From contig RWJK01001870.1 in the NCBI GenBank assembly GCA_004335835.1, positions 50,242 through 114,241 of the forward strand: 64,000 bases of DNA, in the 5' to 3' direction. The notes below the pieces were generated by a model. The model had not been told where the DNA came from. It did no database searches and saw nothing but the letters and a program-made list of their open reading frames with translations. Source of the DNA: Scenedesmus sp. ARA3 (Eukaryota; Chlorophyta; Chlorophyceae; Sphaeropleales; Scenedesmaceae). This document shows positions 7,048-62,421 of the stretch, piece after piece; position 1 is the stretch's first letter; each line of letters begins with the position of its first letter. The position numbers were made by a program, and so were the translations under genes.

Positions 7048-7270
7048 TCTCCCGGCAGACTCTGAGGCCTCCTGCTCCTCTGGCAGACTAGTCTGCTGTG
7101 GGCTGGCAGGGCTACTGCTTGGGGACGGTTTGCCAGTTGTGGCTGCGGCGGCAAGCTAGGCAAGCTAGGCAACCGCTGTAAATAATCTGCCGCCAGATTC
7201 TGTTGCCTCCCGCTGCTCCAGACTTTGCTGGGGGCTGGCAGAGCTGCTGGTGCCTGGCGTTGTGCCTGTT
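7048..7270 (-). repeat. Two downstream copies of the Mini-RNase III terminal coding segment
   Basis: The C-terminal phrase of the terminal exon (SSAASPQQTVEEQEA) recurs as SSASPQQSLEQREA (7270-7186) and SPASPQQTSLPEEQEA (7152-7048), each in an open minus-strand frame that soon stops. They lie behind the stop codon at 7317, so they are either 3' untranslated copies or alternative terminal exons. Confidence 0.65.
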
Positions 7271-7316
7271 TGCAGCTGTGGCTGTGTTTGGCGAGGGCTG
7301 CGCAGCTGGTGTGGGG

Positions 7317-8616
7317 TCACTCACTGGTTGCGGGATCTGCGGCCTCTTGCTCTTCCACTGTTTGCTGCGGGCTGGCAGCGCTGCTGCTGCCGGGCGTGCC
7401 TGGTTGTGGTGGCAGCAGCGCACCCACCAGCAGCTCTAGGCGGTGAGGGTCGCTTAGGTGCAGGTGGCCCACCTGCGACATGCACCGGTTGCAGCAATGT
7501 GGGCTTCCTTGCCTGATGGGGCATTTCTGCAACTACACGCATATGCACACGACCGCATCCGTAACTGTGGAAGCACCATTGCAGCCGCATGCAACGACAC
7601 ACGCCCACAAAGCAGCTGTGCATTGCCAGCGTAGCATAGGAGTCAGCGACCCACCAGGGCCTCCAGCATCTGTTTACCAACACCTGCCGCCACAATATGC
7701 AAGCATCACACAAGCAACCAGCCGGACACTGCCAGCCACCCACCAGCGCCTGCATCGCGGTCGCCTTTCTGTACGCCGTTGCTGCTACCACACGCATTAA
7801 ACACATCCATACATAAACTCATCACTCTTGCAATAACCCACCAGGGTTTCCAGAGCTGTGGCCTTCCTGTACGCCTCTGCTGCTGCTGCAAGGCTTGCAC
7901 GGCACAACCTTGTCACTGCCTTTGACCACCTTCAACAGCCACCAACTCCTTCAAGAAAATACGTGCAAAGCAGCCAAGCAGCAACAGTGCAACTGCCAGC
8001 GACCCACCAGGGCCTCCAGTTCTGTTGCCTTCCTGTACGCCACTGCTGCCGCCACATGCAACACAAATACATCCACACATACACTCATCACTGTTGCAGC
8101 AACGCACCAGGGCCTCAAGTGCTGTGGCCTTCCTGTAAGCCTCTGCTGCCGCCACACACAACACAAACACATCCACATCACAAATCACAGTATAACAATT
8201 GCAGCAACCCACCAAAGCCTCCAGAGCTGTGGCCTTCCTGTCCGCCTCTGCTGCTGCTGCAAGGTCTACACAGCACAACGTCCCTGCCTTTGACCACTTT
8301 CAACAGCCACCTCAAGCAGCACCGAAAAGCCAAAACACCGAAAAGCAGCCCAGCAGCATCAGCAAAACAGTCAGCAGCCCACCAGCGCCTCCAGAGCTGC
8401 TGCCTTCCTGTAAGCCTCTGCTGCCGCCGCATGCAACACAAACACATCCATACATCACACTACAACAGTTGCAGCCACCCACCAGGGCCTCCAGAGCTGT
8501 CGCTTTCCTGTACGCTTCTGCTGCTGCAGGGCTGTCGAAGCGCTTCCGCAGCTTGACAGCCTGCCAGGCAGCGATGCGGCGCAGCAGCGCAGCCTCAGCA
8601 GCAGTCAGCTGCAGCG

Positions 8617-8660
<44 letters not shown>

Positions 8661-9669
8661 AGCAGCTGATCGAACAAGGCTGCCTGCAGGTTGTGGGTTT
8701 GGGGAGTGAAGCAATGTATGCAGAGGGGTGCTGGTGAGCAGTGGGCAACAGCGTGATGTGTTACTGCTGGGTGTGACATGAGCATGTTGTGTATGGTATG
8801 CAGCCGTAGTAGCGTGCTGCACGGCCTGGCACATGCTGTTTGTTGTGCTGCTGGGTCAAACGACTTGGTCATAGTTGTCCCAATAGTCAAGCAAAGCAGC
8901 GTGTGCCGTTACCTGTCCTTCTGCAGTCACGTAAGGCCGCACCGCGCTCTGGTACAGTGAGTGGTGCTTTGGGGGGTTGAGGAAGTGGCGCCGCACACAC
9001 AGCTGCAGTGCAGGAGAACCAACAAGAAGCCCTCTGTTGTGTCAATGCTGGCACAGCGCACAAGGTGATGAGCAGTGCTGATCTGGCCAGCTGTTGCAGC
9101 ACTTTGCGAGTGAGCCAGCTCCAAAGAAGCTGTACTGCAGCTGCTGAAGCTCTACTCGCAGAGCGCCTCAACTAGCATGCAGCTGCAAAGGCAAGTGGCA
9201 GCCGCAGTAACACATGGGTGCTGCTAAAGAATTGTGTAGCAGACTGCAGGGCTGCTGCTGATGATGCTGCTCGATGGCTGACTGCTGCTGCTGCTGCTGC
9301 TGCTGCTGCCATTGTTGCAGGGAGCCGGGTGGCTCCTGCACACAGCTGGCCAATACAGCTACTACTCACACTCCAGATAGCATCGCCAAGGAAGGCTAGC
9401 GCCAGTGTATCGTCTGCTGTACTGCTGACAGCTTTGATTGGTTTGCTATTGCTGGCAGCAGCGGCTTGTATGCTTCTGCGAGGAGTGCGGCACGCTGCAA
9501 AGAAGCTGGCTGCTGGCCGTAACCTAGTTTGTGACGGCAGCGTTGATTGTTCAGCTAGGCTGGAAAAGCGTGTGAATCCAGATGTTGGTACAGTTGTGCT
9601 GCTGCATTTGTGCCTACACCCTGCTTGTCCGTGATGTTGCTGTAGCTGCGTCATGTTGCTGGCATGCAT
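7317..9669 (-). CDS. mrnC: Mini-ribonuclease III (plastid-type RNase III domain protein), 4 exons, about 248 aa
   Basis: Exons (minus): 9669..9370, 9002..8913, 8683..8483, 7472..7317, all joining in frame. The first frame codon is GTG/CTG-like at 9669 with an ATG at 9654, so the start is 9654 or in that neighbourhood. The N-terminus (Arg/Ser/Ala-rich, about 75 residues) resembles a chloroplast transit peptide. Then come 'LALAFLGDAIWS' (RNase III first motif with the catalytic Asp), 'LCVRRHFLNPPKHHSLYQ', a poly-Ser loop, 'RIAAWQAVKLRKRF', and 'AYRKATALEAL' joined to 'VGHLHLSDPHRLELLV', the Mini-III C-terminal motif with the catalytic Glu. The family matures 23S rRNA in bacteria and acts on plastid RNAs in plants. 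The last codons overlap a perfect GTGAGT donor, so an alternative C-terminus is possible. The intron 8482-7473 holds seven partial copies of exon 3. Confidence 0.85.
7651..8476 (-). repeat. Array of seven exon-3-end/intron copies in Mini-RNase III
   Basis: The last ~50 bases of exon 3 (coding AEAYRKATALEAL plus the GTGGGT/GTGCGT donor) recur with start points near 8376, 8207, 8102, 7999, 7838, 7737 and, degenerate, 7651. Each copy is preceded by CTGCTGCCGCCA-like or CTGCTGCTGCAA-like sequence and separated by one of two spacer types. The short spacer (~45-50 bases) contains ACACAAACACATCC. The long spacer (~105-115 bases) contains TTTGACCAC and TTCAACAGCCACC. The order shows that the block 7838-8158 is itself a copy of the block 8207-8530. 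Confidence 0.85.
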
Positions 9670-10030: not shown

Positions 10031-13000
10031 ATGGTGAGCATGGCGGGCAGCTACATTCAGCTTTCTTGGGACACCGGTCCTCTCACGCTCCCAGTCAGCC
10101 TCATTCGATCACCTCGTTCTGCAGGCAGTTCAAGGAAATGTTGCCCTGGCCTTCGGGCTGGTCGTGGCTGCCGGCATGTGCACATGCTTCGGAGCCATGC
10201 TGGTGTTCTGCACCAGCCTCGCAAACCACCGGGTGCTGGCTGCAGCACTGGGTGCTTCAGCAGGCGTGATGATGGTGAGAGATCGGCCAGCATCTTGAAG
10301 GCTGAACTAAGCATGGAATCTATCTAGCACAGTCAGCTCACTACAGCAGCTCACTGGACCCGTCAACCCTGGACCTGTGTGCTTTGTTCTTGCAGCGGTG
10401 ATGTCAGATGCACGAGGATGCAGTGCCACACCTCCAGTGGTTTGCAGCAGCATGCTTGCATTGCTGCTCTGGCTGCACCCCCACATCCCATCACCCCTGA
10501 CCCTCTCATCTCACAGCCCACAAGTCACCCTTCCTCCCTGCCATCTGCCACCTGCCATGCAGTACGTGAGCTTTGTTGAGATCACCAACAAAGCAGTCAC
10601 CGCGTTTGCTGATGCCGGCATGCCCGCTCACGAGGCAGCCCGCTACGCCACCTTCTCATTCTTCCTGGGTGTGGTTGCCACCTGGCTGCTGGGCAAGCTG
10701 GTGGACTGCCTTGCCACAGCAGCACGCGTTATTCAGGCCAGGAAGGTGCGAAGCATTCTGTGATGGATAACCAGATGTCAGTGGGTGCGTTGTCAGAGAT
10801 AGGATGGCACACAGCATCCAGGACCAGACACCAATAGGCGCAAACAAGCAGCGAGGCATGCGCTGTGGGGTGATGTTTGGTGTCTGTGGGCATCCGGCCC
10901 TTTTGCAAGGTTGTTTGGTGATCGTAATAGCATTCGGTTGCAATGCCATGGTTGCTATGCCATGGATTTTTTTTTGAGTGCTCACACCGGCCGTTGCTTG
11001 CTGCTTGCAGGAGCGTCTCGCTGCAAGCGGCCGTGCTGGACGCTGTGCGCAGTTCTCTCTGTGCTCCTGCATTCCTGGCGCTGGCAGCAAGGCAGCCGCA
11101 GCAGCAGACGTCGAGTCTGGCGGCGCAACTGCCACAGTGGTTACTGCCGGCAGTCTTCATCATCAGCAGCTGGATGTTGACGCATGCGGCGCAGCAACAG
11201 ACCAAGCAGCCAAGAACCACACCACCTCCTCTTCCGCAGCCGCTAGCAAGGGCCCTACAGTGTCAGCTGATGCAGCGGCCGTTGACCCGCTTGCTGCACC
11301 AGCTGTGCCGCCTATGGTGCTGGCTGCAAGCGGCTGCAAGTGCGGCTCTGCAGCATCGTCTGTGGATGGCTCTGTCACCATGTGCGACTGCTGCTGCGAG
11401 GGAGTGCCGCCTGCAGCACCCCTGGAGATCCCCCCACAGGTGAACAGGCTGCTTCGTTGTGGACAGAGAGTTTTCAGATAGCATGTAAGCATGTAAGTAT
11501 CCTGAGCACGTCCGATCGAAATGTGGCGTAGTGCTGGCAGGGTGGCATGTGCAGCCACTGCTCTGATGAACCTGTCGCCTTGCAGGCGCCGTGTGCGGTG
11601 CACACCATTGGATATCGACTTGGTGCTGCCCGCTGACTGCCAGCTGAATGTGGCAGGAGCTGCTGCATGAGCATTTTTAAACTGTTGGATCGACTATACG
11701 GCGGCTGCTGCGTGTTGCTTCGGTTGCTTGCTTGCAGGAGAACCTCCAGCTGGCGTCCAGCCCTGCATGCAGTCGTCTGGCACGCAGGACACCAGTATTT
11801 TACTGTCTGCTGTGTGGTGAACCCAAGGTGGTTTGAAAGTGGCTTTCTCCTCTGAGTTCACCTCTTGCTAGAAATACGTGTAATTGATTGATTGATTGTG
11901 TGGTGTGCGCTTGCAGGAGAACCAGCAGCTGGCGGCCATGATCGCGTCTGACCCGCACGCCGCTGACCTGGCGCGCACCGGGCTGCTGACGGGGCTGGCG
12001 GTGGGCCTGCACAACCTGCCTGAGGGCCTGGCCACGTTTGTGGCCACACTGGCCTCACCCTCTGCTGGCATTGCCATCGCTGTGGCCATGTGAGTGGTTA
12101 TTTGCGTGGTTTGGATGTGTACTGAAGGCCTGGCCACCTTTGTGGCCACGCTGGCCTCGCCATCCGCTGGCATTGCCATCTCTGTCGCCATGTGAGTGCA
12201 TCTGTGTGTATGGCATCTGTAAAGGGAGGCCTGGCCACGTTTGTGGCCACGCTGGCATCACCCTCTGCTGGCATTTCCATCGCGGTCGCCATGTGAGTTG
12301 TGCATCCTGTGTGTATTCAAAATGTCAGGATGTCATGAGTATGCATGCGCGCCCTGCTCTACTTGCTTGCCCATTGCTTCTTGTTTGCATGCAGTGCGCT
12401 GCACAACATTCCGGAGGGCGGCGGCGTCGGCAAGCCCATCTACCACGCCACCCTCCTGTACATACTCTGTACATGCCCTTGACTGTCCTGTTTTGCTGTT
12501 CCCTGCTGTTTGTTTGCTGCAGTGCGCTGCACAACATCCCGGAGGACGTCGTCGTGGCCATGCCCATCTACTACGCCACCCTCCTGTACATGCCCTTGAC
12601 TGTCCTGTTGTGCTGTTCTGTTCCTGTTTCGATGCTGCAGTGCGCTGCACAACATCCCCGAGGGTGTTGTTGTGGCCATGCCCATCTACTACGCCACTCC
12701 CCCAAATGCACTGCACCCTCAATATTGCATCACTTTTTCTGTGCATGCAGTGCGCTGCACAACATCCCTGAAGGCGTCGTCGTGGCCATGCCCATCTACT
12801 ACGCCACCAAGTCCCGCTGGCGCGCCTTTGGCTGGTCCTTTGTGAGCGGCGTTGCAGAGCCCATCGGCGGCTTGCTGGGCTATGCTGTGCTTGCAGGAAA
12901 CGGCATGTCCCCGATCGCTTTTGCAGTCATGTTTGGCTTTGTGGCGGGCATGATGGTGTACATCAGCGTGCGTGAGCTGATTCCAACCGCGCTGCGCTAC

Positions 13001-13090
13001 GACCCGACAGATAAGGCGGTGACCAGCTCATGCATTCTGGGCATGGCAGTGATGGCCAGCAGCTTGCTGCTGTTCAAGGCGCAGGGCTGA
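10031..13090 (+). CDS. ZIP-family metal (zinc/iron) transporter, ZupT/GufA-like, 6 exons, 425 aa
   Basis: Exons 10031..10033 (ATG only, followed by GTGAGC), 10125..10274, 10563..10745, 11011..11439, 11917..12089, 12751..13090; the total is exactly 426 codons. Exon 2 encodes the first membrane helix ('[19 protein letters not shown]'). Exon 3 carries helices 2-3 ('[12 protein letters not shown]', '[15 protein letters not shown]'). Exon 4 is a long cytosolic loop with clustered Cys ([12 protein letters not shown]), perhaps metal-sensing. Exons 5 and 6 hold the paired metal-site helices [10 protein letters not shown] and [13 protein letters not shown], then 'SGVAEPIGG' and the last helices ending 'LLLFKAQG'. 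ZIP proteins move Zn, Fe or Mn into the cytosol; the target membrane is unknown. Incomplete copies of exon 5 and exon 6 ends fill the intron between them. Confidence 0.9.
11737..11790 (+). repeat. Decoy 5' copy of ZIP exon 5
   Basis: After CTTGCTTGCAG at 11736 the sequence reads ENLQLAS, matching the start of true exon 5 (ENQQLAA after CGCTTGCAG at 11916). It then diverges and the frame closes before any useful donor. Confidence 0.6.
12121..12294 (+). repeat. Two decoy 3' copies of ZIP exon 5 with donors
   Basis: The end of exon 5 (coding [22 protein letters not shown] and the GTGAGT donor at 12090) recurs at about 12124-12192 and 12230-12294, each again followed by GTGAGT. Neither copy has a convincing acceptor in front, so they cannot be stand-alone exons. 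Confidence 0.8.
12375..12750 (+). repeat. Three decoy 5' copies of ZIP exon 6 with acceptors
   Basis: The acceptor and first ~55 bases of exon 6 (T-GCG-CTG-CAC..., coding [19 protein letters not shown]) occur with copy starts at 12395, 12523 and 12641 before the functional start at 12751. Each is preceded by a pyrimidine-rich tract and GCAG, and each runs into intron sequence instead of the rest of the exon. The first copy has altered codons ([11 protein letters not shown]). Confidence 0.85.
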
Positions 13091-16620: not shown

Positions 16621-16656
<36 letters not shown>

Positions 16657-16993
16657 TGGCTGACACAGCAGCAGCAGCGCCTGCCAAGAACCTCACGAGC
16701 GACCTGGAGCAAAGCACAGCAGCAGCTGACACGCCAGCTGCAGCCTCTGAGGAAGCTTCTGCTGCTGCTGAGCAAAGCAGTGATCTTAAACAAGAGCAGC
16801 AGCAGCAACAGCAGCAGCCAGCAGAGCGGAGTGGCAGTGGCGGCATTGGTGCCGTAGGTGGCCTTATCAGGTGGCTCTCTGGTGGTAAGAGGGCCAGCAG
16901 GGCAGCCAAGCCAGCAGCAGCAGCAGCGGAAGATGCAGCGGCAGCCAAGTTGGTGTCGGATCTGACGGCATCCATGTTTGCCAGTGTGGTGGC

Positions 16994-17024
<31 letters not shown>

Positions 17025-17483
17025 GAGACAGAGGCGGCGGCTGTGCGCGAGCTGAATGAAGAGCAGCAGCAGCAGCAGCAGCAGGCGGCAGCAGCGGCTG
17101 GAAACAGCAGTAGCAGTGACAAAGCAGGTTCCAATCCTGCAGCAGCAGCAGCAGCAGCAGCCGCAGCTGCTATTGAAGAGTCTGAGCAGCAGCAGGAGGC
17201 GTCTGGCCTGGCACCTGCAGCTGTAGGAGGTGCCATTGCTGCTGCAGCAGCTGTGGCAGGTGCCACTGCTGCTGCTGCTGCTGCTGCTGGTGCTGTTGCC
17301 TCTAGTTCCACAGCAGATGGCCAGGACGGCCCTACAGCAGGACCTGCTGCTGCTGCTGCTGCTGCTGCTGGCCTGCCTCCAGCGGCCCCCACTCTAAAGC
17401 GCACTGGCAGCAGCAGCGGCAGCGGAGGCAGCGGCCGCTTTGGACTGTTTGGCTGGCTGCGCAGGTCTGGATCCAGTGGCAAC

Positions 17484-17519
<36 letters not shown>

Positions 17520-18557: not shown

Positions 18558-18589
<32 letters not shown>

Positions 18590-28686: not shown

Positions 28687-30946
28687 TCAGGCCTTGGGGA
28701 AGGAGAAGTACTCCTTGCTCCCCTTAGGAGTGGGCTTCATGGTCCTGCAGGCAAGCACAGCACGGCGCCGACGTGTTAGCAGGTGCTGCTCAATGCTCAA
28801 TGCTGAGTCACCCGCAGAACACGCTCTGCCAGCGATGGTCAACGGTTGAACACCAGTGAAAAGTTGGGGCGATTAATACTTGGCGGTACGCCGGCAGTCG
28901 GTGAACTGCTAGAAATTCATGTTCTTGGTATTTGGTTTGGTTTGAGTGGAGTACAGCACCAACTGCCGCTGTTGTTGCAATCGACTGCACCGCACCTGTC
29001 TCCTGGCCTCCAGCCAGCTGGGCACACCACATCTGGGTTGGCCTGCACGTGCTGCACAGCCTGCAGCACAAAGACAATAGAAAGTAGTCACATGGTGACG
29101 GCAGCAGGGGCAATCATCAGCATGAGTTAAACACCATACTCAGGTTGGCCTGCACGAGCTGCACAGCCTGCAGCACAAAGACAATAGACAACGTAGTCAA
29201 GATGACGGCAGCAGGGGCCATTAGCAGCACTGCTTGAATACAACATCAGGCTTGCATGCTGACCAGCCTGCAGCACAGCACATGGACAGCGCTGACACGG
29301 CAGCAGCAAAACACTCATCACCTCAGCCTGCTAGTGCACGAGGTTTATCCGCAGCAACACCCAGAGGCTGATGATTAAGCTTTCGGGAAGACCGCAAGAC
29401 GGCCTGCAAGGCCACAGGTGACGCTAGCATCACCAAGGCCACAGGTGACGCTAGCATCACCAAGGCTACAGGTGACGCTAGCATCACCAAGGCCACAGGT
29501 GACGCTAGCATCACCAAGGCCACAGGTGACGCTAGCATCACCAAGGCCACAGGTGACGCTAGCATCGAACCAAACGCAGCCACGGCCACGTACCGCCAAG
29601 ATGCGAATGGTCTCTTCTACGTTGCGCCCGAATGCCAGGTTGTTGATGGTGGCGTGCTGCACCACTCCCTGTGGGTCAATGATGAACAGGCCACGCAGTG
29701 CGATGCCCTCATCAGTCAGCACACCGTAGGCCTCGCTGATCTTCTTGCTCAGATCTGACACCAGGGGGTAGGCCAGGTCGCCTACACCACCTGCAGTACA
29801 AGAGCGGCAGTGCAGAATGCGAGGCTCAGCACAGATTGTATGGGCAGTCCAATAGTATACGTAGTGCGGCAACCAGGGTTGGGAGCTTCGTAGTTTGTGG
29901 TTCGAGACTGCTGCACGGCACAGGTCCACTATGTAATGCTGCAGCTGTGTTACAGGCACGCTGCTGTTGTCACCAGGACTCTCCCCTCATTGCGCGACTG
30001 GCGCGTCCACTGCAGGTGTGTCGCTTGCGACAAACATATAACAGGCACACAACAGACATACCGCTGCCTGCTCACCCACATTGCGGGCGTGGCGCGTCCA
30101 CTGCAGGTGTGTAGCATGCAGGCATCACAATCCTATGCAGCACAGCGGCACCAGCGCTGGACTCACCCTCGTTGCGCGGCTGGCGTGTCCACTGCAGGTG
30201 TCTCGCATGCAGGCACTGCGCACGCGACAAACAACCTTAAAAGTGCATCAAACATACTCTTCTCTGCTCACCCTCTTTGCGCGGCTGGCACGTCCACAGC
30301 AAGTGAATGGCATGCAGCCACAACACACATTATACAGGGCAGTCGTGATGCGGTCTGATGCAGCGCTGAGCAAACATACTGCTGTCTGATCACCTTCGTT
30401 GCGCGGCTGGCGCGTCCACTGCAGGTGTGCGTACTGGCTGTCCACGCTCACGCCCAGCACCTGAGCGTTCATGGCCTCAAACTCATCGTGCCTGTCGCTG
30501 TAGGCGGTCAGTTCCGTGGGGCCTGCAGCAGCAGCAGCAGCACCAGCAGGGATTGCTTAGGCATACAAAGAGATAGCTGGGGTGGGTGCTGTGCCAATTG
30601 ATGTGGCAGTGTGTTCAATTGCCAATGGTGTTCAGCAGCAGCAGCAGCAGCAGCAGCAGCGGCGGCAGCGCATGGTGGGACACACGAGAAGGTGCGGTTG
30701 CGTGTGTGGTGCGCGAGCCGCAGGCGATCAACTGCAGGGTCAAGTGTGTAGCAACGGATAGTAATGCAGCTGCAGTGGGCTGTAGGTGCGGTTTGTGCCG
30801 CTTGTTCTATCTGGCAGTGCTGGTCATCCTGCTCTGTGCAGCTGCCACTGCTGATGCCTGCTTCCTGTGCCGCTGCTGCCGCTGCTGCTGCTGCTCCTGC
30901 TGCCACTCACAGACAAAGGTGAAGTCCAGTGGGTAGAAGAACAGCA

Positions 30947-32967: not shown

Positions 32968-35810
32968 TTAGATGGCTGCGAAGTACTCCTTGCTGCCCTT
33001 GGGGTCGGGCTTCATGGTCTTGTCTCCGGGCTTCCAGCCTGCTGGGCACACCTCGTCGGGGTTGCTCTGCACGTACTGGATGGCCTGCACGCATCGAAAC
33101 AAAAAGGGAAAGGAAAGGCGGCAGCACGGATACAGCATCAGCAGCAGGAGGCGACAACAGCATGGCGCACGCAGGCTGGCAGCTGCGCCCATGCACATAC
33201 ATTGCGGCAAGCAAGCAGCCCCAGGATTAAATGTTGCAGGCAAGCAGGCTACATTACTGCTTTGCAGCAAGCAGGAGCTTTTGGGTGGCAGTCAGAATGC
33301 GCAGGCCGCATCCACGCCGCATCCATATTCTGCAAATGCAATGAATTATTGCACAGTATGCACCAGCCATGCATTGAAAAATTCGCTGCCCTTTCATGAA
33401 CGGCTTGTCACAGCACTGCCGTGTGTCAAAGCAGCGCACCTGCAGGGTGCGCAGGGTCTCATCAACGCTGCGGCCGAAGGCCAGGTTGTTGATGGTGGCG
33501 TGCTGCACCACTCCCTCCTTGTCAATGATGAACAGGCCGCGCAGTGCGATGCCCTCATCGGTCAGCACACCGTAGGCCTCGCTGATCTCCTTCTTGAGGT
33601 CAGCCACCAGGGGGTAGGCCAGGTCACCCAGGCCGCCTGTTACGTCAGGCAGAAATAACATGAAAAGTAACAGGTGTATGTTGGTGCGTGTTGTGTGGAA
33701 GTTGTATGTGGGTGGGTGGCTGCCAGGGCCTCGCTGATCTCAAGAAGGAGAAATAACATGAAAAGTAACAGGTGTATGTTAGAGCATGTTGTGGGGACCA
33801 TATGTGTGTGGGTGGCTGCCAGGGCCTCGCTGATCTCCATCTTGAGGTCAGCCATCAGGGGGTAGGCCAGGTCACCCAGGCCGACTGTTACATTGAGCGA
33901 AATGACAGGAAATGTAACAGTTATATGTTGCTGCAAGTTGTGTGGGGATTGAATGCGAGTGGGTGGCTGCCAGGGCCTCGCTGATTTTCTTCTTGAGGTC
34001 AGCCACCAGGGGGTAGGCAAGGTCACCCAGGCCGCCTATTATGAGGAATAGGATTAACAGGAAACGTAATAATTATATGTTGGTGCTTTTTGTGGAGAAT
34101 GTATGTGTGTGGGTGGCTGCCAGGGCCTCGCTGATCTCTTTCTTGAGGTCAGCCACCAGGGGGTAGGCCAGGTCACCCAGGCCGCCTGTTACAGCAGGCA
34201 GAAATAACATGAAAAGTAACACGTGTATGTTAGTGTGTGTTGTGGAGACTGTATGTGTGTGGGTGGCTGCCAAGGCCTCGCTGATCTCCTTCTTGAGGTC
34301 AGCCACCAGGGGGTAGGCCAGGTCACCCAGGCCGCCTGTTACATCAGAAATAACAGAAGCGTTTTCAGTTTTCGAGTCAGCAACCAAGGGGTAAGACAGA
34401 GGTCGTGCAAATCGCCCATCACAGGAAGATAAGTAACCGAACATTTGCTGTCAATGACGGCACTTGCATTTGCCAACAGCAGGTGGCATCGGCCACTTGT
34501 GCAGGTGTGGGACACGAGGGTCCAAGACAAGGCCAGCAAGCCAAGCAGCGGCACACAGGCCAGCTGCTGTTGTCCTGCACCATCCTCACAGCCGGCTTCT
34601 GTCAACATGCATTTCCATAAGATCACATCAGTCTGTTTATCTGCCACTCACCCTCCTTGCGGTCGGTCTGGATCCAGGCCAGGTGGGTGAACTGGGAGTC
34701 CACAGACACACCCAGCACCTCAGCGCCGATGGACTTGAACTCTGCGTGCCTGTCGGAGAAGGCGGTGATCTCCGTGGGGCACACGAATGTGAAGTCCAGC
34801 GGGTAGAAGAAGAGCACCACGTACTGGCCCTTGTACTTGTCCAGGGACACGTCCACAAACTCCTGGTCAAACACTGCAGGGTGGAATGACAGACAGGATA
34901 AAGACAGGGAGCGCAGGCAGGTGAGAGGGTGAGAAGGTGCACTGTGAGGTGCTTGTCCAGGGACAGCCGAGGGAAAGGAAAGGAGCAGGAGGTGCACTGT
35001 GAGGTACTTGTCCAGTGACACGTCCACAAACTCCTGGTTAAACACTGCAGGGTGGAGCGACGATGGTTTGCAGCGGAGCATGGGAGGACAGCAGAAGAGG
35101 CACAGGGGAGGTATGGGGGTGGGATGCAGTAGGAGGGGCGTGGTGGGTGTAGTGCGGGGTGGAGCAGCGATGGACGTCGCAGGAGAATCTATGCCGCTGC
35201 TAGTTGCTGAAAAAACCGCAGGGACACGTTTTCCATGAACCTTCAACAGTACTGCGCTGTTGATTCCTGCAAGACTCAGCTGCTGGTGCTGGTATTGGCT
35301 AGGAGACTGCCTGCCCAAAAGCAGCCACACAACACAGCTGCTGTAGTGTGGCTACTGCCGCTGCAGTGCCTCATTGGCTGCACGCTGCATCTGTGACAAA
35401 CAACATGATTAATTCAAGACGTTCGCGACTGCTGCTGCTGCACTTGCAAGGCTGCTGGCTGCTGAGACACCACATTCCAGACAAGCGATCAAGCAAACTT
35501 CTCCCACGGTGCCAAGTGTCCGGGCCAGTCTACCGATGCAATTTCGTCAACCTATAAATGTTTTATGTCAGCAGGGGTCGTCAATTGCTGCGATCCTCAG
35601 TTGTCTGGCACTGGTATTCTCCAGAGCGTTCTCACCTGCGGTTGCCTTGAAGGCGGGCGCCTTGCTGCCGATCAGGGGTGCAGCTGCGTTCACCACAACT
35701 GCGTTACGCCTGGAGGCACGCATCACCTGGCGAGCGGCCACGCGGGCAGGGGCAGCTGTCTGCCTGGTGGCACGAGCCACGCTCATGTTGCGGGATGCGC
35801 AGAGGGCCAT
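32968..35810 (-). CDS. PRX1: Typical 2-Cys peroxiredoxin, chloroplast type, copy A, 4 exons, 236 aa
   Basis: Exons (minus) 35810..35636, 34873..34652, 33636..33440, 33084..32968 join to exactly 237 codons. The N-terminus (about 43 residues: [20 protein letters not shown], Arg-rich, no acids) is a chloroplast transit peptide. The enzyme follows: '[16 protein letters not shown]', '[20 protein letters not shown]' (peroxidatic Cys), '[17 protein letters not shown]', '[19 protein letters not shown]', '[19 protein letters not shown]' (resolving Cys), 'GSKEYFAAI' (YF motif). Plastid 2-Cys Prx detoxifies H2O2 made by photosynthesis and is recycled by thioredoxins or NTRC. The symbol follows algal usage and is tentative. 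The introns before exons 2 and 3 are enlarged by tandem copies of the exon starts. Confidence 0.93.
33720..34345 (-). repeat. Four to five decoy 5' copies of peroxiredoxin A exon 3
   Basis: The acceptor and first ~60 bases of exon 3 (coding [21 protein letters not shown]) recur with copy starts at 34335, 34185, 34035 and 33884, plus a shorter piece at ~33750, before the functional start at 33636. Spacing is about 150 bases. After 'ISEA' each copy changes to the same intronic text (minus: CTGGCAGCCACCCAC... then CATGTTATTTC). The acceptor is CAG in all but 34035, where it is TAG. Confidence 0.9.
34935..35046 (-). repeat. Decoy 5' copies of peroxiredoxin A exon 2
   Basis: CTGCAG at 35047-35045 is followed by codons [14 protein letters not shown], repeating the start of exon 2 (34873) and then running into CTCACAGTGCACC. 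A second, shorter piece (LDKHLTVHL) lies at about 34965-34935. Confidence 0.8.
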
Positions 35811-48194: not shown

Positions 48195-52245
<4,051 letters not shown>

Positions 52246-52371: not shown

Positions 52372-52586
52372 CACTACGAGATGCGCACAGCCATGGCTGC
52401 CGGGCTGGTTTAGTGGCAGAAACAGCAGCACCAATGGCATAGTCATGCCTGCTGCTGCGGAGTGTCAGTACAGCTGCACAGCAACAGTGTTGGCAGGAGC
52501 AGCGATTGGGTTTGGGTGCGATGAGAAAACATTGGACACTGTCAATTTTGCAGCCATGGCCTTGTGTAGCGCTCAAACCATACGTT

Positions 52587-52595: not shown

Positions 52596-52679
52596 ATCAT
52601 TTAAGAATCCCCGCAGTTCTGGCCGTGATTTTGCACCGTCTCGCAGCAGGCGCGACGGATTGTTGCATTGAAGCCCGTA

Positions 52680-53085
52680 CGCCAGCAAACAGCCAGTGTG
52701 CGCCCACCGTGATAGCATCACAGCCTCAAGGTCTTTCATGATGCAAGGCACAACCGTGCGGCTGAGGGATCCACTTTCAGCACCCATGGGCAAATGAAGA
52801 CTCTTCATGTGTGCAGATATGATATCTGCCACACAGGCAGCAAAGGAAGCGCCACAGCCCCTGGCATTTGCAAACTTTGAGAGATGCGGCATCTCTCCTC
52901 AAACCAAAGCAATGCCGGGCACTACCGCCACGCCAGCTATGCTGTGCTGCGTCTGCTCCACCAGCGTGTCCCGCACGCCGCCAAAAGGCCAGTGTGCGCC
53001 TGCCATCACAGCCTCAACCTCTTTCACGGTGCGGGGCACAACCATGAGGCTAAGCAAGCCGCTTTCAGTATCACTGATTAAATGG
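52680..53085 (-). repeat. Two copies of the prolidase terminal exon end beyond the stop
   Basis: The C-terminal part of prolidase ([23 protein letters not shown] and on to the stop) recurs as ESGLLSLMVVPRTVKEVEAVM...GIALV-stop (about 53075-52899). An older copy, SGSLSRTVVPCIMKDLEAVM (about 52790-52690), is also present. Each copy starts within a related GCATTTGCAGA/GTGTGCAGA spacer. Confidence 0.85.
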
Positions 53086-53161
53086 GCATTTGCAGATGTA
53101 CCTGCCACACAGACAACGATGGAAGCGCCACAGCCGCTGGCATATGCAGATGCGTATGCCT

Positions 53162-54966
53162 TTACGCTACAGCAATGCCGGGCACTGCCACAACGCCAGC
53201 TATGCTGTTCTGCGTCTCATCAACCGGCGTGTCCCGCACGCCGCCAAACGGCCAGTGTGCGCCCGCCATCACAGCTTCGATCTCCTTCACGGTGCGGGGC
53301 ACATCTGTCAGGCTGAGCGAGCCGCTTTCAGTGACAACCACGTTGTCTTCGATGCGTACTCCGCCCATAGACATGAAAGGCTGGATGGCTTCCTTCACAA
53401 GGAACTTGCTGTGCACGGGGTCCTGCATAGGCAGCGAGCAGACATGCAGGTTGACGCATGCAAGGTGCTTTGGGCAGGGTGTACGGACATGCAGGTTAGC
53501 ACGTGCAAAGTGCTTTGGAGCAGGGTGTACGGGCCCATGGCCATGAAGGGCTGGATGGCTTCTTTCACGAGGAACTTGCTGTGCACGGGGTCCTGCATAT
53601 GCATGAGGAACAACAAGGACAGCATGTTTAGGTCCTAATTAGGACGTGAAGATAAGGTTTGATGTCTGATGCGCCGACTTGGTTGTGCACCCCTAAAACC
53701 CCTGGCACTAGGGAGTCCGGTGCCTGTGGCGGACACCAGTCTATGAGAGCTGTATGGTCTGTCTGATGTTGCATACACACATGCCATGCAGTGCAGAACA
53801 GCCACAGCAGCAGCTGTCCTGCAAGCACTGCATGCGGTCACAAACATGCCCAGCCGCTGCTTGCCTCACCTCAAATGCTGGCAGCAGCAGCACTGGGTTG
53901 AAGTAGCAGCCTGGCTCCACAGTAATATGATCATGCCTTGGGGCACTGAGCATTGCAGGTTCAGCGAGTACATTAAGAAATCGCCACCCTCACCTCAAAT
54001 GCTGGCAGCAGCAGCACTGGGTTGAAGTAGCAGCCTGGCTCCACAGTGATGATCATGCTAGCAACCGCGCTGAGCATCACAAGTACAACCAGTGATCAAA
54101 CACACGCCACCCTCACCTCAAATGCTGGCAGCAGCAGCACCGGGTTGAAGTAGCAGCCGGGCTCCACAGTGATGATCATGCCAGCCTCCAGCTGCCGCGC
54201 AGTGCGCAGGCTCTTGTAACCGGGCCGCTGCAGCAGCAGACAAGCAGCAGTTGTTTTGTTATGACAGTTACTGTCTGCAGTCACTGCAGCTGCCGTGCAG
54301 TGCGCAGGCTCTTGTAGCCGGGCCGCTGCAGCGGCAGACATGCAGCAATTGCGTTGTTACGGCAATATTGTTTGCAGTCACTGCAGCTGCCTCACAGTGC
54401 GCAGGCTTTTGTAGCCGGGCTGCTGCAGGCAGCAGACATGCAGCAGCAGTGTTGGTTGCGCTGCAAGTCACGCTACCCAGCAGCCAGGCATGCCTGGCAC
54501 GTCTGCGCAGAAGACACCTTTTTTTGTTATCAGTGGGAGCAAAACCCTACTGGCTGGCCATACACAGCAAACAAGCGAACCCCTTTTCGGGTCGTGGCTA
54601 GCACATGCGACACGCTCGCTGCACCGGCTGCACTCAGCAGACGCAAAGCATCATAAGGACCACAGCACACAACCAATCGCGGAAGAGGGGTTGCATAGCT
54701 GCCGGTGCAGTAGCTTGAATCAGTGGCATCGTGTCAAGAATGGCAAATGTTGCCAGCGCAGCAAGCCTACCTGGGTGCGCTCAGGGAAGCCGTCACCGTA
54801 GCCACCCACATCGTGCGTGTCAATGCCGATCAGGTGGCCCAGGCCTGGCAGCAGTGGCAGCAGCAGCAGCGGCGGCGGCAGCAGCGGCAACAGCAGCAGG
54901 CAGCGGCATGCTGAGTGAGTGCGTGTTGATGCCGATGAGGTGGCCCAGGCCTGGCAGCAGCAGCAG

Positions 54967-58400: not shown

Positions 58401-59361
58401 TCATCATTCACGCCAAACAGGTGGTGAGCCATACAGCTGCAGCAATTGCTACCAGCAGCAGCACTTTTGCTGGGCTTGCTTGCTCACATTTCTAACATCC
58501 AGTGCTCCCCAAAAGCCGTCCTCGTTCACGCCAAACAGGTAGTGCAGATAGGACTCCTGCCTGAACAGCTGCTCGCCGTCAGTGGTGTACACCGGCTGCA
58601 CATCACCGCCCTGCATCCGTATATGTTTGAGATGTGTGTTACTTTAGTTGGTATGTACAGCAGCAATGAGCACAGGCGGTGGGCGCCTGTGGAGTGTCAG
58701 GTATGCGCTGCACAGCAGATGCTGACAGAGTCAGCATGAAGCATGTACTGCTGTATCATACGTGATGAAGCTCAGCTACGTGGCACGCGTGGTACACTGC
58801 GTTACTGCATTGCTGTTGTTTGTTCCGCTGCGGTCTCTTCCTGCTGCTGCTGCTGTTGCTACCACGGCAGTTGCTTCCCATTTCTGCTGCGCTGCTGCTG
58901 GCAGTGACTTTGCCCTCTGCCACATACTATAGCTGTACATGAATAACATGGCAAAGTATCAAAACAAGCCATTCAATTCACCTTGAGCAGAATGATGCCC
59001 CGTTTGTCCACAGGTAAGGCTGCCTGCATGCGCTGCAGCACCCCCTGCTGTATCGGCCCATGGAAGGCCCGCCTGTCTATCCTGCAAGGCACAGCCGTAC
59101 TGCTCAGTAAAACACCCACTGCATTGCTACATGCTGTGTTATTTCCATCAATGTGTGTGACCCTGCCGCTTACTTCAATGTGCCCGGGCCCATGTAAAAG
59201 CAGCACCGGTCCTCTGCCATGCTGCTGTGCTTTGTTGGTGCTGCTGTGGAAGCTGATCTAACGAGGTGAAGAGCTGGATGGCGTTTACACGAATTAAGGA
59301 AACCGTTTGAACGTAGCGCGGAACGAATGAGCATGCGGTGCTGGCACACAGTCGATCGCAT
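53162..59361 (-). CDS. PEPD: Prolidase (Xaa-Pro dipeptidase, M24), organelle-type presequence, 12 exons, 561 aa
   Basis: Exons (minus): 59361..59174, 59081..58982, 58610..58488, 58054..57864, 57574..57403, 57214..57130, 56740..56600, 55912..55728, 55360..55306, 54844..54771, 54227..54117, 53422..53162; all phases agree and sum to 562 codons. The first ~45 residues are Arg/Ser-rich and acid-free, a presequence. The N-terminal half has '[19 protein letters not shown]' and '[16 protein letters not shown]'. The catalytic pita-bread half keeps all five metal ligands: '[19 protein letters not shown]' (two Asp), '[18 protein letters not shown]' (His), 'TVEPGCYF' (Glu), '[14 protein letters not shown]' (Glu). 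The enzyme splits dipeptides ending in Pro, usually with Mn. Organelle location is inferred from the presequence. Introns are swollen by repeated pieces of their neighbouring exons. Confidence 0.93.
53430..53610 (-). repeat. Decoy 5' copy of prolidase exon 12
   Basis: Minus strand CTGCAG at about 53604 then codons [20 protein letters not shown] repeats the start of exon 53422 (…FMSMG) and then runs into GGTGTACGGG intron text. The spacer itself holds two GCATGCAGGTT/GCAAAGTGCTTTG units. Confidence 0.85.
53865..54062 (-). repeat. Two decoy 3' copies of prolidase exon 11 with donors
   Basis: The exon end coding [17 protein letters not shown] and the GTGAGG donor (working copy at 54117) recurs at about 54045-53995 and 53925-53872, each time with similar intron start (GTGGCGTGTG, GTGGCGATTT). 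Confidence 0.9.
54290..54445 (-). repeat. Two decoy 5' copies of prolidase exon 11
   Basis: The exon start coding [12 protein letters not shown] (working copy 54227) recurs near 54330-54285 ([13 protein letters not shown]) and 54425-54385 ([13 protein letters not shown]), each with CTGC-rich acceptor context, then intron text TGACTGCAAAC. Confidence 0.85.
54905..55175 (-). repeat. Three decoy 5' copies of prolidase exon 10
   Basis: The start of exon 54844 (coding [11 protein letters not shown]) recurs at about 54952, 55067 and 55167, each after a CTGCTGCCAG-like acceptor, each turning into ACTCA-CTCAGCATG intron text and a CTG-rich tract before the next copy. Confidence 0.85.
56030..56410 (-). 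repeat. Three decoy 5' copies of prolidase exon 8
   Basis: The start of exon 55912 (coding [13 protein letters not shown]) recurs with acceptors near 56075, 56244 and 56406. Codons after KFT read into shared intron text (minus: AGCGCTCGTCTGCAGCA...). Spacing is about 165 bases. Confidence 0.9.
56790..56855 (-). repeat. Decoy 5' copy of prolidase exon 7
   Basis: Minus GCCGCAAG then TTACACCTGCATGCTGCC repeats the start of exon 56740 ([15 protein letters not shown]), with a short deletion and then divergence into CGGCAGGCTCACAG. Confidence 0.75.
58370..58440 (-). repeat. Decoy 3' copy of prolidase exon 3 with donor
   Basis: Codons [19 protein letters not shown] plus GTGAGG mirror the exon end ([19 protein letters not shown] plus GTGAGC, working donor at 58487). 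Confidence 0.9.
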
Positions 59362-60099
59362 CACCAGGCAGTTGGGCGAAGAAACGAACAACAGATGCTA
59401 GCAGCGCCTGCGCGGTTCGCAGTGTCTGAACGGCTCCAATTGTTGAGTGCATGCACTGCGGCCTACCGGGAGCACTACGTGGTAACAAACCCTAGACTGC
59501 TGACATGGCCAACACATCAGCACACACCTGGCAGAGGAAGAAGAAGAACACACAGTAACCTGGCACACATAGCCAAGCAGTGGAGCGGCAGCAGCTTCTG
59601 CGGAGATGACTTTCACGAAAATCAGCTCTGGTAGGTATCAACCCAACGGGCATGCATAACGGTTCAATGTGTTCGACTTGCAGGCCATGCGGCAGCAGGC
59701 TGCCTGCAGGTGATCAAGATGCACAACTGTAGGTGGCAGTGCTGCGCCAAAGCACACCATATTGTTACATGATGGGAGCAGCTGCGCAAAGCGCACTCAC
59801 AGAAATGAGAGAGGACAGAGTTCCCAACGTACAAGCCACGTGGTGCACCCTTATCACGAGGAGGCTAGCAGTGCTAGCCGTGCAGCTTGCAGTGCTAGCC
59901 GTGCAGCTTGCAGGCATCCCTGGCTGATTCAGCCAGTAAACAGGCTGACTCAGGCAGCCTGCGCAGCTGGAAGCACAAGCGCGTCCAAGGAGAGCATGAA
60001 GCACAAGGCACTGGTGCACAGCACGCAGCAGGTCCATTATAACAGTGGTGTCGCCTCGCCCACAAAAGCGTTGCAGCTGCAGCCACCAGCAGCTAGCCG

Positions 60100-62421
60100 T
60101 TGTAGCACAGCTTCCCAACACTTGCGCTGGCCTCATAGAATGATCAATCGCCTCCTCACCAAAAGTGCCAGCTGCCTCAAAATACGTCAAGTTTGGCAGC
60201 GGCAGCAGCACCTCAATGTCTTCGTCCTGCAAGCAGCTGCCATCATCCAATGCTTCAGCATTCCCAGATAAGTCCAGCCACTCCAGCAGAGGCAGCCGTG
60301 CTATTGCCTGCAGCACAGCCCTATTCGTGATGAGGCAATCCTGCAGCTGCAGGGCTGTCAGCTGCGTCAGGCTGCGTGCAATCGCTGTTGCTGCTGCGTC
60401 ATCTATGCCCCAGGCACCGCGGATGCGCAGTTCTGCCAGCCGCGCGAGCTTTGTGAGCTGCGGCGTATTTGTCTTTTCATGTGGGCCGTTGATGGAGTCC
60501 AGGCACAGACATGTGAGGCGCTGCAGACCTGCAGGGGTGCAACAGCAGGCGAAACACAAGCAGCAGGCATGAACAGCAGCGCACAGAGGCAGCTAGGCAC
60601 TGGGAACATGAGTGCGCACCTCTGCACCATCCTCATCATGCTACTGCACAGCACACACCACAGCACCAGCATCATTAGCCCTGCGGCCCACCGACACGGA
60701 GGCAAAAGGGAGAATGCCTGGGTCGCTGACAGCCACTTGTTTGTTTACAATTGCCTCGACACCCACCTGTGAAGTAGCTGCAAATGTCAGCCTCCTCATC
60801 CAGCAGTGACCCATCTGCTGGCAACTGGAGCCCTCAGAGCAGGAGGCACTGTGCAAGCACAGCATAGAGGTTACATCATTGAACTTGTGTGCTTTGTCCT
60901 TATATTCTATACATGAATGCAGCCAAGAGCATTGCAAGAGCCCACCTGTGAAGTAGCTGCAAATGTCAGTCTCCTCATCCAGCAGTGAGCCATCTGCTGA
61001 CAGATCCAGCTCCACAAGGCTGGTAGCAGCGCCAACAGCCGCCAGCAGCTGCTGCCCCTCCTCCATGCTCAGCTCTGCCCGGCAGTCTTTTATCTCCAAG
61101 CTGTGCAGGCAGCTCAGCTGCCGCCAGGCTGGCGCTGCGCTGCGGGCCTTTGCTGCTGAGGTGTACATCAGGGAGAGCTGCTGCAGCTTGGTGAGGCACG
61201 TCAGCTGCTGCAGCTGCTCTGCTTGAAACAGCGCATCTGCATGAACACAGCAGGAACCAATGAGCCTCGTCAGCAGCATGCCTCTCCTGCTTGCATGTAT
61301 CCTTACGCAATGCATACGTCAACAGCCGAAAGCACAGGCCAACACGCAGGTGCGCTCGTTTCCGGTGGTTGCTGTGACTGTGTCATCCAGAGCACCCAGC
61401 AGCAGTGCATGCCGCAAACTTAGATGCACCGGCAGCCCTGCTGCACACACCGTGCATGCAGCATGCAGTGCAGCAACTTTTACGAGCTGGCATTCAGACG
61501 CTTGAAGCAAACATGGGCACACAACTTCACACAACTTCACAAGCTCCTCATTAGCATTACGGTTCTGCTGCCTGCAACACATCCTCGCCATTATTCAAAG
61601 CTTCCAAAGCTTCAAAGCTTCCAAAGCTTCCAAGGCTTCAACGCTCCAAAGCTTCCAAAGCTTCAAAGCTTCCAAAGCTTCCAAAGCTTCCAAAGCCATG
61701 CACACACCTGTCAGCTCCAGCTCCTGCAGCTGCTGCAGCGCTGAGATGCCCAGGTGCTGCACATCAGTGCCGGCCTCATCTCCCCGCGCACACACAGCCA
61801 GCGATGTCAGCTGCCCCGGACGGCTCAACCCAGCTCCCGGCCTGCCGCTCACAGTCAGATCCAGCTGCTGCAGGCGCGTCAGGTGCAGCAGCGACAGCAG
61901 CAGCTCGCTGCTGCGCCTGTGCTCGCTCCTGCACCCTGCGCTGAGCGTGAGCTGCAGCAGCTGCGCCGGCAGCAGCGTGACATCCGTGCCTGGCGCTGTG
62001 CTTTCAAGCCGCAGCTGTGTCAGGCTGCTGAGGCGGCTGATAGCTGCCAGGCTCGCATCATTCAGCCTGCCATATGCATAACAGTCAATGCCAGCAGGGA
62101 CAGCAGTGGTCTGGCTGTCTGATAATGAGCTGCGTTCGTACAGCTCGAGCTCCTGTAGCGAAGTGAGGCGTGCGATTGCAGCTGCTACGCGCGGCCGGTG
62201 CACGGCCCACGGCGTGTCGCTGTGCGTCTCATACGACCAGTCGTCTTCGGTGTGGGCCAGGATGAGCCGAGTGAGCGATGCTGCCGGCAGCGCCTCCAAC
62301 AGCTGGGGTCTCGTGTACAGGTCACAGCTGAAGGTCCTGAGGGCCAAGCGGGGCCTGGCTGCTGCTGCTGCTGCTGCTGGTGGTGGTGCTGCTGCTGGTG
62401 GCGGTGTTGCTGTGGCGGCCG
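60100..62421 (-). CDS. Leucine-rich-repeat protein, incomplete model
   Basis: Three exons are clear on the minus strand: about 62421..61708, 61236..60946 and 60528..about 60150 (a GTGAGG donor follows 'YFEAAGTF'; otherwise the frame runs on to 59765). Repeats: 'ASLTRLILAHTED', 'LTSLQELELYERSS', 'LSSLTQLRLESTAP', 'LTRLQQLDLTVSG', 'LQQLQELELTG', 'LTKLQQLSLMYTS', 'LSCLHSLEIKDCR', 'ATSLVELDLSADG', 'LQRLTCLCLDSI', 'LARLAELRIRGAW', 'LTQLTALQLQDC', 'LPLLEWLDLSGN'. The 5' end is lost: upstream lies the inverted-repeat element at 62423-62991, into whose end the frame reads, so the true start or an F-box part is missing or displaced. The Ala-Pro run near 62400 comes from triplet repeats. Function unknown, probably protein binding. 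Confidence 0.65.
60765..60840 (-). repeat. Decoy 3' copy of the leucine-rich gene exon 61236-60946
   Basis: The exon end (coding ADGSLLDEETDICSYFTG plus GTGGG donor) is repeated here nearly base for base (QMGHCWMRRLTFAATS in the shifted frame), about 170 bases downstream of the working donor at 60945. Confidence 0.85.
61595..61698. repeat. Ten-base minisatellite (CTTCCAAAG) in an intron
   Basis: About ten units of TTCCAAAGC with variants TTCAAAGC and TTCAACGC, rich in AAGCTT. It lies directly behind the donor at 61707 of the leucine-rich gene. Confidence 0.9.

What the first reader, a model, noticed from the sequence alone, without database searches (positions are those of the whole stretch)
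7048..61000. Genome-wide style of splice-junction-spanning tandem duplications
In at least nine intron-containing genes, exon-intron boundaries are tandemly repeated. Copies upstream of an exon consist of intron 3' end + acceptor + exon start; copies downstream consist of exon end + donor + intron start. About 40 partial copies can be counted, and I found no complete two-sided exon copy. The working acceptor is always the last of its array and the working donor the first, which follows from tandem duplication across the junction. The copies keep coding identity far above the surrounding intron, so they are young or conserved. The density suggests a mutational process aimed at junctions (for instance the AGGT duplication model of intron gain) or a role in splice-site choice. 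I know of no description at this density, but could not search.
Basis: partly seen in the sequence, partly recalled or inferred. Interest (0 to 1): 0.9.

Follow-up and report, generated by a model that had tools for sequence, protein, structure and literature searches.

The report
Exon-edge tandem copies across algal genes
In this green alga, stretches of roughly 100-140 letters covering the edge of a protein-coding exon are repeated side by side in the neighbouring intron or gene tail; in the three genes we could check the messenger RNA leaves them out, yet their exon halves stay unexpectedly similar to the real exon.

Summary
In the 64 kb window 25 coding-sequence (CDS) edges carry 50 surplus partial copies; 200 kb of another contig has 27 edges with 49 copies. 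The organism is Tetradesmus obliquus or a close relative. Nearest-copy units are 87-263 nt, 37 of 52 at 100-140. Each joins 28-148 nt of exon edge to adjoining noncoding sequence. I saw no whole-exon copy.

Transcript-type proteins of three genes skip the copies at 15 splice edges and end at both array-bearing stops. The copies carry frameshifts (35 of 41 indels).

With all exon-derived sequence masked, so that sensitivity is comparable, 17 edge arrays remain against 7 repeats elsewhere, where geometry predicts about 1 to 2 (P 1e-4). The exon half is about 91% identical whether the intron half is still recognisable (28 arrays) or not (23). I favour short tandem duplications tolerated at CDS edges, whose exon half is then homogenised against the selected real exon. 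Evidence for targeted formation is weak; functional decoys are not excluded.

The parts
7061..7472 (-). Donor-edge array: exon 7325-7472, 2 low-similarity copies downstream (7061-7152, 7199-7272); junction doubtful
   Evidence: predicted protein has no Pfam hit
7726..8683 (-). Donor-edge array: exon 8483-8683, 6 copies of its last 43-45 nt plus donor
11917..12301 (+). ZIP transporter exon 11917-12089, donor-edge array, copies 12122-12198 and 12228-12301
   Evidence: skipped in P0241
12372..13018 (+). ZIP transporter exon 12751-13018, acceptor-edge array, copies 12372-12452, 12506-12580, 12624-12697 (same intron as the donor array)
   Evidence: skipped in P0241
25182..25537 (+). ARM/YCII-type gene exon 25386-25537, acceptor-edge, one copy 25182-25241; similarity starts 6 nt before the junction
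28996..29199 (-). 2-Cys peroxiredoxin copy 1, acceptor-edge, copy 29131-29199
29984..30522 (-). 2-Cys peroxiredoxin copy 1, donor-edge array (exon 30394-30522), 4 copies
33440..34355 (-). 2-Cys peroxiredoxin copy 2, acceptor-edge array (exon 33440-33636), 4 copies, successive units 248, 151, 150, 150
   Evidence: homology
34652..35061 (-). 2-Cys peroxiredoxin copy 2, acceptor-edge (exon 34652-34873), copy 35004-35061
49285..49744 (+). Lipoyl synthase exon 49538-49744, acceptor-edge array, copies 49285-49354 and 49388-49483
   Evidence: skipped in P0001
49538..49986 (+). Lipoyl synthase same exon, donor-edge copy 49866-49986: 115 nt exon plus 6 nt intron aligned
   Evidence: skipped in P0001
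50225..50517 (+). Lipoyl synthase exon 50360-50517, acceptor-edge copy 50225-50318
   Evidence: skipped in P0001
50813..51348 (+). Lipoyl synthase exon 50813-50956 (donor placed from P0001), donor-edge copies about 51053-51171 and 51233-51348
   Evidence: skipped in P0001
51508..51847 (+). Lipoyl synthase exon 51714-51847, acceptor-edge copies 51508-51567 and 51569-51644
   Evidence: skipped in P0001
51714..52014 (+). Lipoyl synthase same exon, donor-edge copy 51912-52014
   Evidence: skipped in P0001
52131..52400 (+). Lipoyl synthase last exon, STOP-codon-edge copy 52312-52400 (in the 3' flank)
   Evidence: P0001 ends at this stop
52674..53422 (-). Prolidase last exon 53162-53422, STOP-codon-edge copies 52674-52757 and 52908-53040
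   Evidence: P0121 ends at this stop
53162..53603 (-). Prolidase exon 53162-53422, acceptor-edge copy 53533-53603
   Evidence: skipped in P0121
53864..54227 (-). Prolidase exon 54117-54227, donor-edge copies 53864-53937 and 53982-54062
   Evidence: skipped in P0121
54117..54453 (-). Prolidase same exon, acceptor-edge copies 54284-54351 and 54381-54453
   Evidence: skipped in P0121
54771..55196 (-). Prolidase exon 54771-54844, acceptor-edge array, 3 copies
   Evidence: skipped in P0121
55728..56423 (-). Prolidase exon 55728-55912, acceptor-edge array, 3 copies, units 161-170
   Evidence: skipped in P0121
56600..56863 (-). Prolidase exon 56600-56740, acceptor-edge copy 56799-56863 (AG lost, frameshift)
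   Evidence: skipped in P0121
58336..58610 (-). Prolidase exon 58488-58610, donor-edge copy 58336-58426
   Evidence: skipped in P0121
60762..61236 (-). Leucine-rich-repeat-like gene (name recalled, no call), exon 60946-61236, donor-edge copy 60762-60823: 57 nt exon plus 5 nt intron

Best explanation
Short direct tandem duplications (typical unit 100-140 nt) keep arising. Those inside coding sequence are mostly removed by selection (inferred). Those with one end in an exon and the other in the adjoining intron or 3' UTR are tolerated, because the outermost edge still works and the surplus copy becomes intron or UTR. Shown: the arrays, their size, their presence at splice and stop-codon edges, and the absence of the copies from transcript-type proteins of three genes. 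Inferred: after duplication the surplus exon half evolves as noncoding DNA but is repeatedly overwritten from, or exchanged with, the selected real exon (gene conversion, or expansion and contraction of the array). This keeps exon half and splice consensus alike while the intron half decays, and lets CDS-edge arrays outlive purely noncoding ones.
For: A young whole-unit array exists: C1435 5926-6503, three copies, unit 242, 97% across exon and intron. Stop-codon arrays have units of 126-136 and 263 like the others. Transcript-type proteins carry the copy-free joins at 15 splice edges and end at both predicted stops. Copies are not coding: 35 of 41 exon-half indels shift the frame; single-copy arrays N/(N+S) = 63/121 = 0.52 against neutral 0.57, P 0.27. 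Exon identity is decoupled from intron decay: intron half recognisable in 28 of 51 arrays, not in 23, with median exon identity 0.906 and 0.917. Multi-copy arrays have fewer amino-acid-changing differences than single-copy ones (164/421 against 63/121, Fisher P 0.012), as exchange within arrays would give. AG kept in 41 of 44, GT in 38 of 47 and the stop in 7 of 7 placed copies, although similarity falls just beyond the splice consensus. Edge arrays exceed the geometric expectation at comparable sensitivity (17:7).
Against: Only one in-frame stop among 227 amino-acid-changing differences, where about 9 are expected for neutral copies. Pooled N fraction 0.42 is below the neutral 0.571. Intron halves under 30 nt are rarer than uniform breakpoints predict (donor 1 of 24, null 5.9; acceptor 0 of 24, null 6.3), which homogenisation alone does not explain. 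No conversion event was observed directly. The narrow unit size is unexplained. 35 of 52 edges rest on an ab initio gene finder without transcript support.
Confidence: 0.5

Rival explanations
1. Plain neutral tandem duplications plus survivorship: duplications arise uniformly, CDS-edge ones are seen because the real exon is frozen and only one copy drifts; no homogenisation and no targeting.
For: No AGGT at breakpoints; unit length mod 3 flat, 34:33:31 of 98; stop-codon arrays; single-copy arrays have near-neutral N/S; noncoding repeats of the same size exist (elsewhere list; L037 11-406 and L044 1957-2139); repeats with 95% or more noncoding identity are 3 at edges and 3 elsewhere.
Against: 17 against 7 at comparable sensitivity where about 1:2 is expected (P 1e-4). 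Equal exon identity with and without a recognisable intron half contradicts a clock.
Confidence: 0.25
2. Duplication is targeted: some process (chromatin, R-loops, transcription, base-composition boundary) makes about 100-140 nt duplications preferentially centred on CDS edges.
For: Edge excess; the edge sits away from both ends of the unit; the three edge arrays with 95% or more noncoding identity match over 151, 65 and 36 nt, the three elsewhere over 59 (27-nt minisatellite), 34 and 28 nt.
Against: Too few young arrays; L037 and L044 are fairly young and look noncoding; the acceptor-side spacing could reflect a need for a branch point; no mechanism shown.
Confidence: 0.1
3. The copies are functional splicing decoys kept by selection to tune splice-site choice or intron retention.
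For: AG kept in 41 of 44, GT in 38 of 47; similarity ends at the splice consensus; one nonsense difference where about 9 were expected.
Against: Stop-codon arrays have no splice site; frameshifts are free (35 of 41); a copy with a broken AG keeps exon identity 0.92 (56799-56863); transcript-type proteins of three genes lack them.
Confidence: 0.1
4. Assembly error or haplotype stitching.
For: Short-range repeats are a classic assembly problem; reads could not be seen.
Against: No second LipA or prolidase locus among the matches listed in the assembly (only best candidates scored); copies differ by several percent with frameshifts; the window has no N; similar repeats on a second contig and in 11 of 22 further loci; exon-interior repeats are few, which artefact would not respect.
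Confidence: 0.04
5. AGGT-type intron gain in progress.
For: Tandem duplication near splice sites.
Against: AGGT at 1 of 99 exon-side breakpoints against 1.9% background; both copies carry the same edge in the same register; no extra intron in the three transcripts checked.
Confidence: 0.01

Closest known systems
Tandem duplication across an intron-exon boundary in the potato RdRp gene (Ma, Lan and Niu 2016, PMC4974935; abstract and Results and Discussion read)
   Same: A direct tandem duplication crosses the 3' intron end and the exon start; splice signals are copied; the paper also notes an 83 bp duplication inside an intron of the same gene.
   Different: One gene, and the duplication made a new spliced intron. 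Here 52 edges in 264 kb, copies absent from transcript-type proteins without a new intron in the three genes checked, donor and stop-codon edges included.
[quoted passage not shown] passages read; Hellsten et al. 2011 seen only as cited)
   Same: Tandem duplication inside genes, splice signals copied.
   Different: Needs an exonic AGGT duplicated to make both ends of a new intron; not found here.
Small tandem duplications by fill-in of breaks with 3' overhangs and end joining (Schimmel et al. 2021, PMC8355091; abstract and introduction read)
   Same: Short direct head-to-tail duplications; a possible source.
   Different: The paper speaks of short insertions below 100 bp in human DNA; here most units are 100-140 nt, often in multi-copy arrays, at CDS edges.
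Tandem-repeat-driven gene-structure change in human segmental duplications (PMC2812944; outline only)
   Same: Tandem repeats that alter gene structure.
   Different: Its section headings attribute the changes to minisatellite expansion in recent paralogs, not to exon-edge copies genome-wide.

Membership tests
AGGT tandem-duplication intron gain | Duplicated exonic segment contains AGGT that becomes donor and acceptor | tested here: not met
   AGGT within 4 nt of 1 of 99 exon-side breakpoints, background 1.9%
AGGT tandem-duplication intron gain | A new intron spliced between the copies | tested here: not met
   Proteins of LipA, PEPD and ZIP carry each of 9 tested peptides once; other genes not tested
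Potato-type duplication across an intron-exon boundary | Direct duplication crosses the boundary | tested here: met
   48 of 52 arrays cross a splice edge
Potato-type duplication across an intron-exon boundary | New intron gained | tested here: not met
   three genes only
Small tandem duplications from break repair | Adjacent head-to-tail direct copies of the whole unit | tested here: met
   Noncoding half recognisable in 28 of 51 arrays, 97% in the youngest; not recognisable in the other 23
Small tandem duplications from break repair | End-joining breakpoints with little microhomology | not tested
   Most arrays too old to place breakpoints exactly
Tandem (mutually exclusive) exon duplication | Complete exon copies with both splice sites | tested here: not met
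   None seen at 52 edges; the search favoured one-sided copies
Introners (intron-generating elements) | One sequence family dispersed over many genes | tested here: not met
   LipA and prolidase loci match elsewhere mostly at trinucleotide-repeat stretches; not every match was inspected, other genes not searched
Functional splicing decoys | Site recognised by the spliceosome | not testable with these tools
   No RNA-seq reads available

The most novel reading that the evidence does not exclude
A whole genome (about 12,000 arrays if C1435 is representative, 17,000 if the pooled 264 kb is) is threaded with short tandem copies of coding-sequence edges, with the exon half held to the real exon by continuing sequence exchange long after the intron half has decayed: concerted evolution of noncoding exon fragments anchored by selection on the adjacent exon, possibly on top of duplication aimed at exon edges.
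Probability: 0.32. Interest if true: 0.75.

Novelty: new variant of a known kind. Interest (0 to 1): 0.55.

Why it matters
If it holds genome-wide, this alga offers thousands of natural experiments on how splice sites are chosen among near-identical neighbours, on the mutation class of 100-140 nt tandem duplications, and on gene conversion over tens of bases. It also warns gene predictors: my HMM took many copies for extra exons (137 predicted exons, either overlapping copies or under 20 nt, were dropped), so gene models from such genomes may hold spurious inserts.

Tried and rejected
Allelic or haplotype duplication: the assembly was searched with the LipA and prolidase loci; apart from the window itself the listed matches are mostly trinucleotide-repeat stretches. 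Coding function of the copies: pooled N/S (N 229, S 316; N fraction 0.42 against 0.571 expected) first looked like constraint, but stop-codon copies, which lie behind the stop, show the same (37:48), single-copy arrays are near neutral and indels are mostly frameshifts. A strong claim of edge-only duplication was cut back: the blind count 52:4 and the count 28:4 favour edges because the exon half or the anchor aids detection; masking exon-derived sequence gives 17:7, or 17:5 if two minisatellites are left out. The C1435 193543-194775 repeat is a short-period noncoding minisatellite by eye. Literature: ten searches, several with only the top of the list shown, found no description at this density; the library lacks most subscription journals.

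Rows dropped before counts: repeats with 3-mer entropy of 4.2 or less, exon part under 25 nt. Not counted as noncoding-only: the 27-nt minisatellite at 29407, C1435 193543, two repeats with offsets 678 and 688, two with offsets 59 and 63, and five clusters touching a predicted exon outside the array set (window 11730; C1435 4396, 16094, 45926, 175100). Four exon-interior clusters (window 42157; C1435 63659, 91707, 174146) were not analysed. Seven junctions were corrected or added by hand; one was off by one and was mended (GT kept 38 of 47 instead of 36). The score cut of 55 written was not passed on (48 applied); rerun with 55 the counts are the same. Doubtful junctions still in the counts: C1435 61305, 18082, 96493; window 7324.
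Full report
ORGANISM AND GENES. The window is C1453:50242-114241 of an 87.3 Mb, 1567-contig assembly. A lipoyl synthase translated from it is 99% identical to a UniRef entry of Tetradesmus obliquus, so the organism is that green alga or a near relative (inference). A small HMM that I trained on the window and 200 kb of contig C1435 converged on a donor CAG|GTGAGT and an acceptor TGCAG|G. Homology certifies prolidase, lipoyl synthase and 2-Cys peroxiredoxin, and Pfam a ZIP transporter and an ARM/YCII-type protein.

THE ARRAYS. Self-BLAST gives 27 clusters of local direct repeats in the window and 38 in C1435:1-200000. Re-searching CDS edges suggested by these repeats against their noncoding side gave 52 edges with 99 surplus copies: window 25 edges and 50 copies, C1435 27 edges and 49 copies. 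Types: 24 acceptor, 24 donor, 4 stop-codon. Probes moved 15-45 kb away scored at most 47.5 in 55 trials; the lowest accepted copy scores 56.5. On the cleaned annotation (164 edges in the window, 666 in C1435) that is about 15% and 4% of edges, with the caution that the C1435 annotation is ab initio only. Of 22 further short loci, fetched by kinase or repeat matches, 11 hold direct repeats of offset 80-300.

GEOMETRY. The unit to the nearest copy runs from 87 to 263 nt; 37 of 52 lie at 100-140 and none below 80, although the pipeline lists offsets of 59 and 63. The exon part is 28-148 nt (25 was the filter), the noncoding part 16-197. Unit length modulo 3 is flat (34:33:31). Intron parts under 30 nt are rarer than uniform breakpoints predict (donor 1 of 24, null 5.9; acceptor 0 of 24, null 6.3). 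For acceptors a branch-point requirement may explain this; for donors I have no explanation.

NOT SPLICE-SPECIFIC. Two stop codons in the window (lipoyl synthase, last base 52245; prolidase, last base 53162 on the minus strand) and two in C1435 carry the same kind of array in the 3' flank. Transcript-type proteins P0001 and P0121 end exactly at the two window stops. A splicing-only account must treat these apart.

WHAT THE CELL DOES WITH THEM. P0001, P0121 and P0241 come from contigs of at most 1.8, 2.3 and 2.3 kb that read through 346, 514 and 425 codons where the genome has introns, so I take them as transcript-derived (inference; the tool calls the source 'lgn', P0001 also UniRef and EukProt). 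14 of 14 tested joins or ends are the copy-free ones, and each of 9 duplicated peptides occurs once (sequences). This covers 17 of 52 edges: 7 in lipoyl synthase, 8 in prolidase, 2 in ZIP. P0241 is 95% identical to my query, in part because my terminal ZIP exons were wrong. This shows the main product, not the absence of minor isoforms.

ENRICHMENT. Placing unit-sized intervals at random on the cleaned annotation gives 44.5% noncoding-only, 20.7% one edge with at least 28 nt of exon, 7.1% one edge with less, 21.1% exonic and 6.6% two or more edges. Blind BLAST in 264 kb shows 52 edge arrays and 4 noncoding-only repeats of period 80-300 (window 31433; C1435 30838, 72170, 135185; minisatellites left out), three of the four matching over only 28-39 nt, and three exon-interior clusters of that period plus one with offset 632. 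That contrast is inflated by the conserved exon half. With every exon and exon-derived part masked, blind BLAST still finds 17 edge-linked repeats and 7 elsewhere, two of the 7 being minisatellites; against 20.7:44.5 this gives P 1e-4 (1.5e-5 without the minisatellites; 1.3e-3 if all one-edge intervals are taken as the expectation). So the excess is real but about five-fold, not tens-fold. Among repeats with 95% or more noncoding identity, 3 are at edges and 3 elsewhere, so formation bias is not shown. L037 11-406 (unit 112, 92%) and L044 1957-2139 (unit 104, 90%) also look noncoding.

AGE AND MAINTENANCE. If a copy simply drifted, the intron half should diverge at most about twice as fast as the exon half. 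Instead, 51 placed arrays split into 28 with a recognisable intron half and 23 without, at the same exon identity (medians 0.906 and 0.917). In ungapped junction-anchored comparison donor-side identity is 0.89 at the first two intron bases, 0.85 at the next two, 0.68 at the next two and 0.48 from the seventh on, about 0.33 beyond twenty; acceptor-side it is 0.97 at AG, about 0.8 over the next four, 0.59 at -8 and 0.41 at -40. The dinucleotide is kept in 41 of 44 acceptor and 38 of 47 donor copies, several losses being at doubtful junctions, and a stop in 7 of 7 placed stop copies. So the exon half plus splice consensus is being maintained, by exchange with the real exon or by selection.

SELECTION OR EXCHANGE. 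Pooled differences are N 229, S 316, below the spectrum-corrected neutral expectation (N fraction 0.42, bootstrap 0.37-0.48, against 0.571); after mending one edge 227 and 315. Stop-codon copies alone give 37:48. Single-copy arrays give 63:58, not different from neutral (P 0.27); multi-copy arrays 164:257. 35 of 41 indels are frameshifts. This fits noncoding copies with exchange inside multi-copy arrays. One result does not fit: only one in-frame stop where about 9 are expected. I report it as unexplained.

COMPARISON WITH WHAT IS KNOWN. Tandem duplication across an intron-exon boundary is known from single genes, for example potato RdRp (PMC4974935; abstract and Results read), where it made a new intron. 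The AGGT model (PMC3443670; passages read) requires a duplicated AGGT; I find one at 1 of 99 exon-side breakpoints. Small tandem duplications from break repair (PMC8355091; abstract and introduction read) are a plausible source. I found no description at this density in ten searches of an open-access library that lacks most subscription journals.

VERDICT. The pattern is real and common in the 264 kb examined. It is best read as a by-product of frequent short tandem duplication filtered by selection at CDS edges, with homogenisation of the exon half as the probable and novel twist. Functional decoys remain open; targeted formation is open but weakly supported.

Noticed in passing
window 54117-54227 (minus): This 111 nt exon has an acceptor array copying its first 42 nt and a donor array copying its last 69 (or 66) nt: both arrays break at the same exon position. 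Coincidence or a shared break event.
   Followed up: no
window 62443-62536: A 94 bp near-perfect self-palindrome (95.7% to its own reverse complement).
   Followed up: no
window 28687-35709: Two adjacent 2-Cys peroxiredoxin genes, 85% identical over a shared exon stretch, whose edge arrays lie at different junctions, so the arrays arose or were remodelled after the gene duplication.
   Followed up: partly
window 16014-19814 and 41665-44469: Very long open frames (1266 and 934 codons) rich in CAG/CTG-type repeats coding poly-Ala/Gln/Ser; function unknown.
   Followed up: no
L037 11-406; L044 1957-2139: Tandem repeats of unit 112 and 104 at 92% and 90% identity with little coding signal: the same size class outside CDS edges.
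   Followed up: partly
L028 3543-4775 and 4969-6617 (C1435 193543-196617): A short-period noncoding minisatellite next to a 678-bp direct repeat at 87% identity.
   Followed up: no
window 12090-12750: One ZIP intron holds a donor-edge array at its 5' end and an acceptor-edge array at its 3' end, so much of the intron is surplus exon-edge copies.
   Followed up: partly
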